The notes beneath the pieces were generated by a model that did not search any database, was not told the DNA's origin, and saw nothing but the letters and a program-made list of their open reading frames with translations. From contig MUNG01000158.1 of NCBI GenBank assembly GCA_002154585.1, forward strand, positions 1-38,399: a stretch of 38,399 nt of DNA, written 5' to 3'. The position numbers and the translations under genes were made by a program. The stretch comes from Streptomyces pseudogriseolus. Lineage in GTDB: Bacteria > Actinomycetota > Actinomycetes > Streptomycetales > Streptomycetaceae. This document shows positions 25,976 through 32,397 of this stretch, piece by piece; positions within the stretch are counted from its first letter, which is position 1; each line of letters begins with the position of its first letter.

Positions 25976-28396
25976 CTATCCCACCCTGATGCCCACGATG
26001 CACGTGTCGTCGTCGGTGTCCGACCTGCTGTACGTGAGCAGCCGGTCGAGCCGCTGGTCGAGCGTGCCCGGCACCGTCGCCGCGGTGGTGAGCAGATGCG
26101 TCAGCGACTCCTCCACCGAGCGGTCCCGGCGCTCGATCAGTCCGTCCGTGTACATCAGCAGGTTGTCCTCCGCGGCGAGCTGCACCTCCCCCTCCTCGTA
26201 GCGCGCCTCGGGGACGGCGCCCAGCAGCAGACCGCGCACCGGGGGCAGCGGAGCCGCGTCGGAGCCGCGCACCAGCACCGGCGGCAGATGGCCCGCCCGC
26301 GCCCACCGCAGGGTGCGGGTGTCCGGGTCGTACAGACCGCACACGGCGGTCGCCGTGACCCCGCCGGTCAGATGGTGCGTCACCATGTTCAGCCACGACA
26401 GCAGCTGCCCCGGCCCCGCGCCGGTGACGGCGAGCCCGCGCAGCGCGTTGCGCAGCACGACCATGCTGGTCGCCGCCTCGATGCCGTGACCGGCGACGTC
26501 GCCCACGCACAGCAGCACCAGACGGGACGGCAGCACCACCGCGTCGTACCAGTCGCCGCCGACCAGCTGCTCCGCCTCGGCGGGCCGGTAGCGCACGGCC
26601 ACGTCCAGGCCGGGCATCTGCAGCGGGCCCTGCGCGGGCGGCATGATCGCCCGCTGGAGCTGAAGCGCCAGCCGGTCCCGCTCGCTGGCCTGCTGCTCGG
26701 TGTGCGCGAGCTGGTCGCGGGTCGCCGCCAGCGCCACCTCGGTCCAGTGCTGCGCCGAGATGTCCTGGTAGGCGCCCCGCACGGTGAGCAGCCGCCCGTC
26801 GGTGTCCAGCACCGGCTCGGCGACCACCCGGATGTGCCGGGTCACCCCGTCGGGCCGCTGCAGCCGGAACGCGGCGGAGGCCGGGCGCCGGTGGTGCAGC
26901 AGCGTGCGCAGGAAACGGCCGATGGCGACCGCGTCGTCCGGGTGCGCGTGCGCCGGGAGGTCCTCCAGCGGCACCGGGGGACTGGTCTCCGGACGCCCGT
27001 ACAGGTCGAACAGCTGGTCGTTCCAGGTGATCTCACCGGTCAGCAGGTTCTCCTCGAACCCGCCGATCCGGCCGAGCCGCTGGGCGTGTTGCAGCAGGCT
27101 CGCCAGCCGCGCCGTCTCGTCCTCGATCCGCCAGATGAACAGGATCCCCGCGCCGTGCCGGCTGACGCTGATGTCCGCGACCGCCGACAGCGGCACCTGG
27201 TCCACCAGCGCGGTCAGATGCATGCGCCGGGCGCGGAACGGCTCACCCGTGGCGTACACCCGCTCGATCCGCTGGAACAGCTCGCTCTGCCCGGCGGCCA
27301 TCGGGTACGCCTCCAGGAGCAGGGCCCCGCTGACCATGCCGCGCGGCCGGCCCGCCGGGTCCAGGAAGCGGCTGTTGACGTGCTGGATGCGGAAGTCGAG
27401 CAGGTTCCCGGACGCGTCCAGGTGCGGCACGAGCACCAGGGCAGGGTCGTACAGCCCGTCGGCCAGGTCCATCAGCTCGGCCGCGTCCGGCAGCACCCGC
27501 GGCGGCCCGGCGGGGCCGTCGGGCGCCGTGTACGTCTCCAGGGTGTGCGCGCACAGCTCCGCCAGGGCCTCCACCTGCCGCACGATCTGCGGCGGCTGCG
27601 GGGGCAGCGGCACGGGCCAGACGATCTCCAGCATGCCGTACACCCGCCCGCCGGTGCCGGCGGGCACGGCCGCCCGGCCGCCGTCCGGGTGATGGTGCCG
27701 GCCCACACTGGGCAGCCCCCGCTCGGCCAGCGACTCGATCCACAGTCCCTCGCGCTCGGCCAGACCGCACCGCGCGACCGTCGCCACGTCCGGCGGCACG
27801 TAGTACCAGCGCGCCGCCTCGGCGGGGGAGAAGCCGGCGCTGCCGGCCAGGGTCAGCGACCCGTCGGCGCCCGCCGCCCAGATCGCCACGGCCACCGCGC
27901 CCAGCGGGCGCAGCGCCTGCTCCAGCAGCGACTCGGCCACCGCCTGGGTGTCGTCGGCGGCGAGCGCCCCGCTCTCAGCCGCCCGCAGCCGTACGGCCGC
28001 CGGGTCGCCCTCCGCCTCGCCGGCCGCCCGGGTGGCGGTCAGGAAGGCGTGCGTCACCTCGGACATCCGGTCCCGGGCGGCCTGGTTGATCACCTCGACG
28101 GCGAACTCCAGCTGGGTCGTCCCGGCCTGCTCGGTCAGCTCGGCGAGCTGCCGCGCCGCCTGCGCCGGACCGCAGCCGAGGCGCTCCACCAGGATGCCCT
28201 TGGCCAGCTCGATCAGCGCCCGCCCCTCGGCCTCCGCCTGCGCGGCGCGCACCTCACGGCTCAGCCGGTCCACCGTCGCCGCCAGCCGGCCCACGGGCGA
28301 GTCGGAGGCCACCCCGGCCGGACCCGCCGCGGCCGGCCGCAGCTCCAGCTCCCTCTCCTCGGGCGCGCGCTCGCCCGGGTGCTCCTGGACGCTCAT
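25976..28396 (-). CDS. ANTAR-GAF-PAS-PAS-PP2C phosphatase
   Basis: An 806-aa multidomain regulator. Residues ~44-105 look like an ANTAR RNA-binding domain (E-G-R-A-L-I-E-L-A-K-G-I-L-V-E-R-L-G-C-G, then A-A-R-Q-L-A-E-L). A GAF-like domain (~150-300) and two PAS domains (~320-430 and ~450-560) follow; the second contains G-R-I-G-G-F-E-E-N-L-L-T-G-E-I-T-W-N-D. The SpoIIE-type PP2C (~580-806) has G-G-D-W-Y-D-A-V and C-V-G-D-V-A-G-H-G-I-E-A-A motifs. It overlaps the hybrid-kinase gene by ATGA, so it is translated with it and probably acts downstream of it. ANTAR domains normally bind dual hexaloop RNAs for antitermination; whether this one still binds RNA is open. Confidence 0.88.
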   Translation of the reverse strand: MSVQEHPGERAPEERELELRPAAAGPAGVASDSPVGRLAATVDRLSREVRAAQAEAEGRALIELAKGILVERLGCGPAQAARQLAELTEQAGTTQLEFAVEVINQAARDRMSEVTHAFLTATRAAGEAEGDPAAVRLRAAESGALAADDTQAVAESLLEQALRPLGAVAVAIWAAGADGSLTLAGSAGFSPAEAARWYYVPPDVATVARCGLAEREGLWIESLAERGLPSVGRHHHPDGGRAAVPAGTGGRVYGMLEIVWPVPLPPQPPQIVRQVEALAELCAHTLETYTAPDGPAGPPRVLPDAAELMDLADGLYDPALVLVPHLDASGNLLDFRIQHVNSRFLDPAGRPRGMVSGALLLEAYPMAAGQSELFQRIERVYATGEPFRARRMHLTALVDQVPLSAVADISVSRHGAGILFIWRIEDETARLASLLQHAQRLGRIGGFEENLLTGEITWNDQLFDLYGRPETSPPVPLEDLPAHAHPDDAVAIGRFLRTLLHHRRPASAAFRLQRPDGVTRHIRVVAEPVLDTDGRLLTVRGAYQDISAQHWTEVALAATRDQLAHTEQQASERDRLALQLQRAIMPPAQGPLQMPGLDVAVRYRPAEAEQLVGGDWYDAVVLPSRLVLLCVGDVAGHGIEAATSMVVLRNALRGLAVTGAGPGQLLSWLNMVTHHLTGGVTATAVCGLYDPDTRTLRWARAGHLPPVLVRGSDAAPLPPVRGLLLGAVPEARYEEGEVQLAAEDNLLMYTDGLIERRDRSVEESLTHLLTTAATVPGTLDQRLDRLLTYSRSDTDDDTCIVGIRVG

Positions 28397-31300: not shown

Positions 31301-32397
31301 CCGGCCACACCGGGCACGTGCGCCTGCCCGCCGAGCCGGCCCTCGGTGCCGACCTCGCGCGCGACGCGGGTGACCTCGTCGGCGAACGCGGACAGCGTGT
31401 CCACCATCGTGTTGATGACGTCCGCGAGCGCCGCGACCTCGCCGGCCGCCTCCACCCGGATCCGCTGCGACAGGTCGCCCCGGCCCACCGCGGAGGCGAC
31501 CTGGGCGATGGAGCGCACCTGCCCGGTCAGGTTGGACGCCATCACGTTGACGTTGTCGGTGAGGTCCTTCCAGGTGCCCGACACCCCCCGCACCTGGGCC
31601 TGTCCGCCGAGGCGGCCCTCGGTGCCGACCTCGCGGGCGACGCGGGTGACCTCGTCGGCGAAGGCGGAGAGCTGGTCGACCATCGTGTTGATGGTGTTCT
31701 TGAGTTCGAGGATCTCGCCGCGGGCGTCGACGGTGATCTTCTGCGACAGGTCGCCCTTCGCCACCGCCGTCGCCACCAGCGCGATGTTGCGCACCTGGCC
31801 GGTGAGGTTGCCGGCCATGAAGTTCACCGAGTCGGTCAGGTCGCGCCAGGTGCCCTTGACCCCCTGCACGTCCGCCTGTCCGCCGAGGCGTCCTTCGGTG
31901 CCGACCTCGCGGGCGACGCGGGTGACCTCGTCGGCGAAGGCGGAGAGCTGGTCGACCATCGTGTTGATGGTGTTCTTGAGTTCGAGGATCTCGCCGCGGG
32001 CGTCGACGGTGATCTTCTGCGACAGGTCGCCCTTCGCCACCGCCGTCGTCACCTGGGCGACGTTGCGGACCTGCGCCGTGAGGTTGCCCGCCATGGCGTT
32101 CACGGAGTCGGTGAGGTCCGCCCAGGTGCCCGAGACCCCCGGCACCTGCGCCTGACCGCCCAGCGTCCCCTCCGTGCCCACCTCGCGGGCGACACGCGTC
32201 ACCTCGGAGGTGAACAGCGACAGCTGGTCCACCATCCCGTTGAAGACCTTGGCGATGTCCCCCATGAGCCCGTCGGCGTCACCGGGCAGCCGGGTGCCGA
32301 AGTCCCCGTCCCGTACGGCCGTCAGCCCCGCGAGGAGCTGCCTCAGCTCCTTGTCCCCCGGCACCGTGTCGGTCCCCTCGGTGCTTCTGCTGGTCAT
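28393..32397 (-). CDS. Poly-HAMP hybrid histidine kinase (Nik1/Os-1-like architecture)
   Basis: A 1334-aa cytosolic kinase with no transmembrane segment. Residues ~10-540 are consecutive HAMP units arranged as five 92-residue repeats, each with [19 protein letters not shown] or a close variant, G-T-W-x-D-L-T-D-x-V-N and A-V-A-x-G-D-L-S-x-K. This is the hallmark of fungal group III osmosensor kinases. A GAF domain (~545-690) and a coiled coil (~690-765) follow. HisKA has S-H-E-L-R-T-P with H779, and HATPase has N-L-L-S-N-A-V-K-F and G-L-G-L-S-I. A degenerate receiver (~1040-1180) precedes a true receiver with D1265 in [11 protein letters not shown] 32397 has GAGGG upstream. Its stop overlaps the ANTAR-phosphatase start by ATGA. 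Divergent from the PRC-barrel gene. Confidence 0.93.
31619..32048. repeat. 154-nt exact direct repeat inside the HAMP array
   Basis: Positions 31619-31772 and 31895-32048 are identical over 154 nt and lie 276 nt (92 codons) apart. The remaining HAMP units, extending to about 31060, are similar but diverged at synonymous sites. Exact identity between only two units suggests recent duplication or gene conversion. Confidence 0.95.

What the first reader, a model, noticed from the sequence alone, without database searches (positions are those of the whole stretch)
28393..32397. Bacterial poly-HAMP hybrid kinase with the fungal osmosensor architecture, beside a sigma-B stress module
Five 92-residue HAMP-pair repeats with [19 protein letters not shown], then GAF, HisKA/HATPase and receiver, reproduce group III fungal kinases (Nik1/Os-1), the targets of dicarboximide and phenylpyrrole fungicides. 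No transmembrane segment exists, so signal entry must be cytosolic. It is coupled by ATGA to a PP2C phosphatase, suggesting that a histidine-aspartate relay controls a serine partner-switch.
Basis: partly seen in the sequence, partly recalled or inferred. Interest (0 to 1): 0.75.

Follow-up and report, generated by a model that had tools for sequence, protein, structure and literature searches.

The report
Streptomyces stress kinase beside its phosphatase
This is a soil bacterium's internal stress-sensing protein of a sort already known by name in a related model species; its gene lies beside one particular phosphatase gene in nearly every relative examined, which gives a testable route from sensor to stress response, while the proposed tie to fungal fungicide-linked sensors is a likeness in building blocks that could not be tested as kinship.

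Summary
At 28393-32397 (-) lies a 1334-residue soluble hybrid histidine kinase: six canonical HAMP domains and five exact 92-residue HAMP-pair repeats, then GAF, HisKA, HATPase and receiver. It overlaps an ANTAR-GAF-PAS-PP2C phosphatase gene by ATGA.

It is not new in kind. Layout and gene order match S. coelicolor SCO7327 ('OsaD'), two genes from SCO7325, the published SigB anti-anti-sigma factor. Bacterial 'group III' poly-HAMP kinases are published (AskA, AskB, Amb07).

The fungal reading is partly right. The HAMP array is shared, but a GAF domain and long helix intervene, the receiver shows no special closeness to a Nik1-type receiver, and fludioxonil is reported not to act directly on such kinases. 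No fungal kinase tree could be made.

Worth keeping is the kinase-phosphatase pair: in 150 sampled genomes of the family, 88 of 93 ANTAR-PP2C places lie beside this kinase. The phosphatase has no recognisable receiver, unlike RsbY or RsfR, so the coupling step is an open, testable question.

The parts
28393..32397 (-). Soluble poly-HAMP hybrid histidine kinase, 1334 aa (SCO7327/OsaD type)
32209..32343 (-). First canonical HAMP domain (about residues 19-63)
   Evidence: Pfam HAMP, 6 stretches; boundaries read from the sequence
30829..32208 (-). Five 92-residue HAMP-pair repeats, residues 64-523
   Evidence: 3 to 7 units counted in 35 kinases, window included
30349..30759 (-). GAF domain, residues 547-683
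   Evidence: Pfam GAF_2 E 1.1e-21
29887..30090 (-). HisKA, residues 770-837, phospho-acceptor H779
   Evidence: H779 invariant in the 35 aligned kinases, window included
29380..29745 (-). HATPase_c, residues 885-1006
   Evidence: N895, N899, D938, G940 and G942 invariant in the same 35
28846..29250 (-). Degenerate receiver, about residues 1050-1184, with E1113 at the usual Asp site
   Evidence: alternating strand-helix order in the AlphaFold model; hhalign to the true receiver 97.7%, E 1.7e-12
28414..28752 (-). True receiver, residues 1216-1328, phospho-acceptor D1265
   Evidence: acid pair, D1265 and K1317 invariant in the same 35
25976..28396 (-). ANTAR-GAF-PAS-PP2C (SpoIIE-type) phosphatase, 806 aa, overlapping the kinase by ATGA
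   Evidence: Pfam; the six catalytic-motif residues checked are invariant in 32 of 32 aligned
28088..28246 (-). N-terminal ANTAR domain of the phosphatase, residues 51-103
   Evidence: Pfam 38.3 bits, cut-off 27.3
25920..25944 (-). SigB-type promoter-like sequence (GNNT-N15-GGGTAC), 46 bases before the rsbV-like GTG
   Evidence: pattern count in the window is not above chance, only the position recurs in some relatives
25481..25873 (-). RsbV-like STAS anti-anti-sigma factor; likely GTG start after GGAGG; DSSG motif
24513..25412 (-). RsbR-like (RsbRD_N + STAS)
24103..24516 (-). RsbS-like STAS
23660..24106 (-). RsbT-like switch kinase (HATPase)
22593..23663 (-). HATPase + SpoIIE phosphatase (RsbX-like position)
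20866..22596 (-). GAF + SpoIIE phosphatase (RsbU-like)
33165..33599 (-). RsbW-like HATPase_c_2 protein upstream; candidate anti-sigma kinase
   Evidence: matched at 75% identity or more in all 9 module-bearing named loci that have upstream flank

Best explanation
This is a Streptomyces SCO7327/OsaD-type cytosolic stress kinase, and its direct or near-direct output is the ANTAR-GAF-PAS-PP2C phosphatase made from the overlapping gene. Proposed working: an internal cue (osmotic or metabolic, unknown) is read by the GAF domain and the HAMP array and sets the kinase/phosphatase balance of the HisKA core; the state of the C-terminal receiver pair then raises or lowers the activity of the PP2C; the PP2C removes phosphate from the RsbV-like STAS protein; free RsbV pulls an RsbW-type anti-sigma kinase off a SigB-family sigma factor. 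The RsbR-S-T / RsbU arm encoded downstream is a second input to the same RsbV. Shown: the domains, their active-site residues, the gene overlaps, and conservation of the kinase-PP2C pair and of STAS neighbours. Inferred: the signal, the direction of control, PP2C acting on this RsbV, and which sigma factor. Unknown: how a kinase speaks to a phosphatase that has no recognisable receiver.
For: Of 93 ANTAR-PP2C places (E 1e-150 or better) in 150 same-family genomes, 83 have the kinase receiver pair just upstream on the same strand by coordinates. The other 10 were fetched: 4 more co-directional (one of them, L120, in pieces), 1 divergent, 5 with no kinase match in the stretch. So 88 of 93 are neighbours. 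From the kinase side, of the 73 strongest receiver-pair rows 70 have a listed phosphatase place just downstream; the other three were fetched and have it divergent (L124), in pieces (L125) or as an N-terminal piece (L126). In 80 named loci, 33 have it co-directional and 4 divergent; 30 more have another PP2C match on the opposite strand upstream. The pair reaches Nocardia, Amycolatopsis, Actinomadura and Nonomuraea. A STAS gene follows the pair in the window clade; in a diverged clade it sits just before the kinase (L119, L121, L123), and L122 keeps STAS and PP2C, with RsbW-like matches, where no kinase is found. SCO7325 is published as an RsbV that activates SigB (PMC8346170, passages). SCO7327 is published as a hybrid kinase without membrane helix and with an unclear cascade (PMC9739842, passages). 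RsbK-RsbY and RsfS-RsfR show that a histidine kinase can steer a PP2C and thence a sigma factor (PMC4574943; PMC10950880; passages).
Against: The phosphatase shows no receiver domain (Pfam to E 0.01), so the RsbY/RsfR mode of transfer is not available to it as such. On the tree the co-directional pairing needs only one change (support 73), so the many cases may be one inherited event. The pairing is not obligatory: 7 of 80 named loci have no PP2C match within the flanks and 6 more could not be judged because the contig ends; 5 of 93 phosphatase places lack the kinase, though each of those genomes also has a kinase-linked copy. Something like the full Rsb set follows the pair in only 8 of the 33 co-directional named loci. 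There is no expression, mutant or biochemical datum here.
Confidence: 0.6

Rival explanations
1. Parallel inputs. The kinase signals through a separate response regulator encoded elsewhere (an OsaB-like or orphan regulator), and the PP2C responds on its own to ligands of its GAF and PAS domains. Both serve the same stress and so share an operon, but do not touch.
For: The PP2C has its own GAF and PAS domains and no receiver. ANTAR-PP2C genes without the kinase exist (L115-L118, L122; a 33% relative in the window's own genome). The paralogue OsaA is paired in the literature with the separate regulator OsaB (PMC9739842, passages).
Against: The pair is kept together in 88 of 93 places in 150 genomes and beyond the family, tighter than shared stress alone would seem to need. 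No receiver-only gene lies in the gene string in the window.
Confidence: 0.25
2. The C-terminal receivers are intramolecular brakes on the kinase, as reported for RsbK, and pass nothing on; the kinase core itself acts on an unknown partner.
For: In B. cereus RsbK the receiver is inhibitory and no HPt is found (PMC4574943, passages). S. coelicolor is said to have in principle no HPt proteins (PMC9739842). The first receiver has lost its acceptor Asp in 29 of the 44 tree rows that have the domain.
Against: RsbK has a receiver-bearing PP2C as target; none is visible here. It says nothing of why the PP2C stays adjacent.
Confidence: 0.2
3. True group III kinase in the fungal sense: same descent as Nik1, same osmosensing by the HAMP array, output by phosphorelay, same response to fludioxonil-type compounds.
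For: 92-residue HAMP pairs (the same unit length for CaNik1p in PMC3848655, passages). No membrane segment. The fungal kinase Drk1 is also described with a pseudo-receiver, listed between ATPase and receiver (PMC6433957, figure legend). Myxobacterial kinases of this kind take part in the response to the antifungal ambruticin (PMC7643160, passages).
Against: GAF domain and long helix between HAMP and HisKA. The receiver is no closer to a Nik1-type receiver than to bacterial ones. No HPt reported in S. coelicolor (PMC9739842). Fludioxonil is said not to act directly on the kinase (PMC6433957).
Confidence: 0.06

Closest known systems
S. coelicolor SCO7327 ('OsaD') with SCO7325 (RsbV)
   Same: Hybrid kinase without membrane helix and with a receiver, two genes (by number) from an anti-anti-sigma factor for SigB (PMC9739842, PMC9739823, PMC8346170, passages). 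The S. violaceoruber locus L025 has matches to all eight window genes in the same order.
   Different: Nothing shown to differ; the letters of SCO7327 itself were not compared. Its cascade is called unclear in print.
OsaA/OsaB/OsaC (SCO5748/5749/5747) and the window genome's own OsaA-like kinase (C139)
   Same: Poly-HAMP soluble hybrid kinase beside a gene with a SpoIIE-type PP2C match; 70% identity over query residues 79-1053.
   Different: Longer array (1839-residue open frame), no degenerate receiver in the OsaA-type rows, PP2C gene divergent, with an RsbW-like start by eye (OsaC is said to bind SigB through an N-terminal kinase domain, PMC10117811, passages) instead of co-directional and ANTAR-bearing.
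RsbK-RsbY (B. cereus) and RsfS-RsfR (M. smegmatis)
   Same: Histidine kinase, in RsbK also hybrid, that controls a PP2C acting on an anti-anti-sigma factor (PMC4574943, PMC10950880, passages).
   Different: There the PP2C carries its own receiver and is phosphorylated; here it carries ANTAR, GAF and PAS and no receiver. RsbK and RsfS have CHASE3 domains; no HAMP array is mentioned for them in the passages read.
Myxobacterial group III hybrid kinases AskA, AskB, Amb07
   Same: Bacterial poly-HAMP hybrid kinases without membrane regions, compared with Nik1 by their authors (PMC7643160, outline and passages).
   Different: Arrays described as longer than Nik1's, several receivers, interplay with MrpC and FruA; no PP2C partner in the passages read. 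Sequences not compared here.
Fungal group III kinases Nik1/Os-1/Drk1/TcsC
   Same: 92-residue HAMP pairs, no membrane segment, HisKA-HATPase-receiver end; Drk1 also described with a pseudo-receiver.
   Different: No GAF in the descriptions read; output by Ypd1 phosphorelay to a MAP kinase.

Membership tests
Fungal group III hybrid histidine kinase (Nik1/Os-1) | N-terminal array of about 92-residue HAMP pairs | tested here: met
   five exact 92-residue units; definition from PMC3848655 (passages)
Fungal group III hybrid histidine kinase (Nik1/Os-1) | no transmembrane segment | tested here: met
Fungal group III hybrid histidine kinase (Nik1/Os-1) | sensing part made of HAMP domains (PMC11253588), none other described | tested here: not met
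   GAF_2 at 547-683, E 1.1e-21, between HAMP array and HisKA
Fungal group III hybrid histidine kinase (Nik1/Os-1) | specific kinship to fungal members | tested here: inconclusive
   receiver only: 8phn 56.1 bits, 20th of 78; PDB poly-HAMP chain 9trk matches at 315 bits but its organism is not known to me; no fungal kinase core was available
Fungal group III hybrid histidine kinase (Nik1/Os-1) | output through a Ypd1-type HPt | not testable with these tools
   PMC9739842 says S. coelicolor has in principle no such proteins (passages)
SCO7327/OsaD-type streptomycete kinase | soluble hybrid kinase two genes from an RsbV-type gene | tested here: met
   all of RsbV-R-S-T-X-U follow the pair in 8 of the 11 named loci that have any of them there, partial in L036 and L044, RsbV alone in L031
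SCO7327/OsaD-type streptomycete kinase | sequence orthology to SCO7327 | not tested
   nearest stand-in is S. violaceoruber L025, 85% identity in the best segment
RsbK-RsbY / RsfS-RsfR two-component control of a PP2C | kinase gene beside a PP2C that acts on an anti-anti-sigma factor | tested here: inconclusive
   gene adjacency met; action on RsbV not testable here
RsbK-RsbY / RsfS-RsfR two-component control of a PP2C | receiver domain on the PP2C | tested here: not met
   ANTAR, GAF, PAS and SpoIIE only, Pfam to E 0.01
Rsb stressosome module (RsbR-S-T with RsbU/RsbV/RsbX) | RsbRD_N-STAS, STAS, HATPase and STAS anti-anti-sigma genes in one string | tested here: met
Rsb stressosome module (RsbR-S-T with RsbU/RsbV/RsbX) | RsbU with an RsbT-binding N-terminus | tested here: inconclusive
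   the RsbU-like protein shows GAF and SpoIIE and no RsbU_N hit at E 0.01
ANTAR domain proteins | ANTAR domain over Pfam's cut-off | tested here: met
   38.3 bits, cut-off 27.3
ANTAR domain proteins | RNA binding | not testable with these tools
   A65 and G67 are kept in 32 and K66 in 31 of 32 aligned relatives, but the Lys is Thr in L119, L122 and L123 of the diverged clade

The most novel reading that the evidence does not exclude
A split response regulator. In ordinary ANTAR regulators the order is receiver-ANTAR in one protein (recalled: AmiR, PdtaR). Here the receiver ends the kinase and the ANTAR domain begins the phosphatase of the overlapping gene. The kinase's receiver pair, one active and one degenerate, could dock on the ANTAR helices of the phosphatase and switch it without any phosphate leaving the kinase, which would explain how a hybrid kinase works in a genus where no HPt proteins are known.
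Probability: 0.12. Interest if true: 0.65.

Novelty: new variant of a known kind. Interest (0 to 1): 0.38.

Why it matters
A 2022 review (PMC9739842, passages) lists SCO7327 and OsaA among three S. coelicolor hybrid kinases whose cascades are unclear and notes that in principle no HPt proteins exist there. The conserved, overlapping ANTAR-PP2C gene is a concrete candidate for the missing next step. It would join histidine signalling to the serine partner switch that controls osmotic stress and development. If the coupling works by contact and not by phosphate transfer, it would be a different way to wire a hybrid kinase.

Tried and rejected
Fungal tree: not made. The collections hold bacteria, archaea, phages and plasmids; the PDB searches gave one fungal group III piece of known origin (receiver 8phn) and one poly-HAMP sequence of unknown source (9trk, with its shorter form 9trj). 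A structure prediction of the HAMP array, meant to find the title of 9trk, came out at pLDDT 40 as a single chain and its search gave no match at E 0.001 or better; it is not used.

Structure search with the C-terminal half was filled by matches to the true receiver, so the degenerate receiver rests on the strand-helix order of the model and on hhalign, not on a structural match of its own.

SigB-type promoters: the loose pattern hits the window 10 times against 13 expected from single-base shuffles, so no claim of enrichment; the site before rsbV recurs at the same distance in L023, L026 and L034, and a similar one in L042 and L063, of 11 relatives looked at.

Phosphomimetic reading of E1113: the site is E in 24, D in 15, Q in 4 and S in 1 of the 44 tree rows that have the domain (L099 printed G there but has only a long linker and is not counted). 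The tree needs 12 changes when absence of the domain counts as a state. A fixed 'always on' Glu is not supported.

An extra gene between kinase and phosphatase in distant relatives was looked for: what seemed a gap looks like a longer phosphatase N-terminus.

Not in print: no paper describing the ANTAR-PP2C partner showed in the listings; this library lacks most subscription journals.

Mended on re-check: an earlier count of mine took 'same contig' as adjacency on whole chromosomes; replace it by true neighbours.
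Full report
WHAT IS THERE. The ORF at 28393-32397 (-) is as described: 1334 residues, ATG start. Pfam finds six HAMP stretches, a GAF domain (547-683), HisKA (770-837), HATPase_c (885-1006) and a receiver (1216-1328). Residues 64-523 are five units of exactly 92 residues, 63-88% identical to one another. There is no membrane segment; the only hydrophobic windows start at residues 630-644, inside the GAF domain. In 35 aligned kinases, window included, the acceptor His, ATP-site residues, the receiver acid pair, its acceptor Asp and its Lys are invariant. 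The number of 92-residue units varies from 3 to 7 among 35 kinases, window included (some starts are uncertain or cut, so the low counts may be too low).

A SECOND, DEGENERATE RECEIVER. Between the ATPase and the receiver lies a stretch that Pfam does not name. The AlphaFold model of residues 745-1334 (mean pLDDT 82, pTM 0.48, 35 sequences) shows five alternating strands and helices at about residues 1052-1182, and a profile of this stretch aligns to the profile of the true receiver with 97.7% probability, E 1.7e-12. The acceptor site is E1113 here; among the 44 tree rows that have the domain it is E in 24, D in 15, Q in 4 and S in 1. OsaA-type kinases lack the domain. A pseudo-receiver, listed between ATPase and receiver, is also described for the fungal kinase Drk1 (PMC6433957, figure legend).

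THE GENE STRING. The kinase overlaps by ATGA a gene for an 806-residue ANTAR-GAF-PAS-SpoIIE(PP2C) protein; the six catalytic-motif residues checked are the same in 32 of 32 rows aligned. After 102 bases comes an RsbV-like STAS gene, whose likely start is a GTG at 25873 behind GGAGG. Then follow RsbR-like (RsbRD_N-STAS), RsbS-like, RsbT-like, HATPase-PP2C and GAF-PP2C genes, these five joined by 4-base overlaps. An RsbW-like gene lies upstream at 33165-33599 and is matched at 75% identity or more in all 9 module-bearing named loci with upstream flank.

HOW OFTEN THE PAIR OCCURS. In the 80 best of 584 named relatives, the ANTAR-PP2C gene follows the kinase on the same strand in 33 and is divergent in 4 (41-45% identity). 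In 30 more another PP2C match (29-38% identity) lies upstream on the other strand; 21 of these 30 fall in the OsaA-type clade of the tree. 7 have no match within the flanks and 6 could not be judged because the contig ends. I did not check that the 30 are immediate neighbours, except for the window genome's own OsaA. In a second sample of 150 genomes of the same family, drawn by the tool, 75 carry ANTAR-PP2C at E 1e-150 or better, in 93 places. 83 of the 93 have the kinase's receiver pair directly upstream on the same strand. I fetched the other 10: four are co-directional after all (L119, L120, L121, L123), one is divergent (L124) and five show no kinase match (L115-L118, L122). That is 88 of 93 adjacent; each of the five exceptions is a further copy in a genome that also has a kinase-linked one. 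From the kinase side, 70 of the 73 strongest receiver-pair rows have a listed phosphatase place just downstream, and the other three have it divergent, in pieces, or as an N-terminal piece only. S. coelicolor is said to have 44 PP2C homologues of RsbU/RsbP (PMC8346170, passages); with about 7,800 genes (recalled), a given neighbour would be one about once in 180. The tree needs one change for the co-directional pairing (support 73), so these are not independent events; they show long retention.

STAS LINK ON BOTH SIDES. In the window clade the STAS gene follows the pair. In a diverged clade (45-47% identity in the phosphatase) a STAS gene with a CDS(S/T)G motif stands just before the kinase (L119, L121, L123). 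In L122 no kinase is found while STAS genes, RsbW-like matches and the phosphatase are there. This fits a phosphatase that serves a STAS protein with the kinase as its input.

WHAT IS KNOWN. SCO7325 is an RsbV that activates SigB (PMC8346170, citing earlier work that I could not read). SCO7327 is called OsaD, thought to be involved in osmotic stress sensing (PMC9739823), and is one of three S. coelicolor hybrid kinases with unclear cascades, no membrane helix and in principle no HPt (PMC9739842); I read passages of each. That the window kinase is its orthologue is inferred from architecture and gene order, with S. violaceoruber L025 as stand-in; SCO7327 itself was not compared. Bacterial 'group III' poly-HAMP kinases are published in Myxococcus and Sorangium (PMC7643160). 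Histidine kinase control of a PP2C in a partner switch is published for RsbK-RsbY and RsfS-RsfR (PMC4574943, PMC10950880, passages).

THE FUNGAL COMPARISON. Shared: 92-residue HAMP pairs, no membrane segment, and perhaps the pseudo-receiver. Not shared: the GAF domain and long helix. The one fungal sequence of known group III origin on hand, the Chaetomium receiver 8phn (identity from PMC11224324), scores 56.1 bits against this receiver, 20th of 78 hits, with PleD at 88.7. Fludioxonil is reported not to act directly on group III kinases (PMC6433957). Descent from, or to, fungi is therefore untested, and the pharmacological hint is weak.

MECHANISM. The gene pair and the STAS neighbours make a partner-switch output likely (0.6). 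The step from kinase to phosphatase is the real gap, since the phosphatase has no recognisable receiver. Three readings remain: no contact and parallel inputs; receivers as internal brakes; or contact between the kinase's receivers and the phosphatase's ANTAR domain. The last is the boldest and rests only on domain order and retention of the pair; stand-alone ANTAR-PP2C genes show that the ANTAR domain does not need the kinase everywhere.

Noticed in passing
15304-16158 (+): SigB/SigF/SigG-family sigma factor gene (TIGR02980, 278 bits, over cut-off 234), about 5 kb from the end of the rsb string; a possible client.
   Followed up: partly
25920-25944 (-): SigB-type promoter-like sequence just before the rsbV-like gene; recurs in L023, L026 and L034, with a similar one in L042 and L063, of 11 relatives looked at; could give the rsb genes their own start inside the string.
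   Followed up: partly
L115, L116, L117, L118: Stand-alone ANTAR-PP2C genes, 56-60% identical to the window's, with no kinase match in the stretches fetched.
   Followed up: no
L122, about 7097-12451: STAS, RsbW-like, STAS, PP2C and RsbW-like matches in a row, with no kinase match where the diverged clade has one.
   Followed up: partly
L119, L122, L123 phosphatase N-termini: The ANTAR motif A-K-G reads A-T-G in these diverged members, so RNA binding may be lost.
   Followed up: no
L120, L125, L126: Kinase or phosphatase matches in pieces or cut short: broken genes or sequencing faults; described only.
   Followed up: no
window genome C139:4182-9659 (L104): Second poly-HAMP kinase, OsaA-like, with a divergent gene at 1013-3853 that has a PP2C match near its end and, by eye, an RsbW-like start.
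   Followed up: partly
kinase arrays in related loci: HAMP array length changes in steps of 92 residues, 3 to 7 units counted in 35 kinases; one spacing of 99 in L026.
   Followed up: partly
32635-33120 (+): Small divergent gene between the kinase and the RsbW-like gene, PRC-barrel-like by eye, with a GGGTAC box at 32552-32576 upstream.
   Followed up: no
L045, L046, L048, L051, L053, L061: Kinases whose first receiver keeps its Asp and which have no PP2C match within 10 kb on either side.
   Followed up: partly
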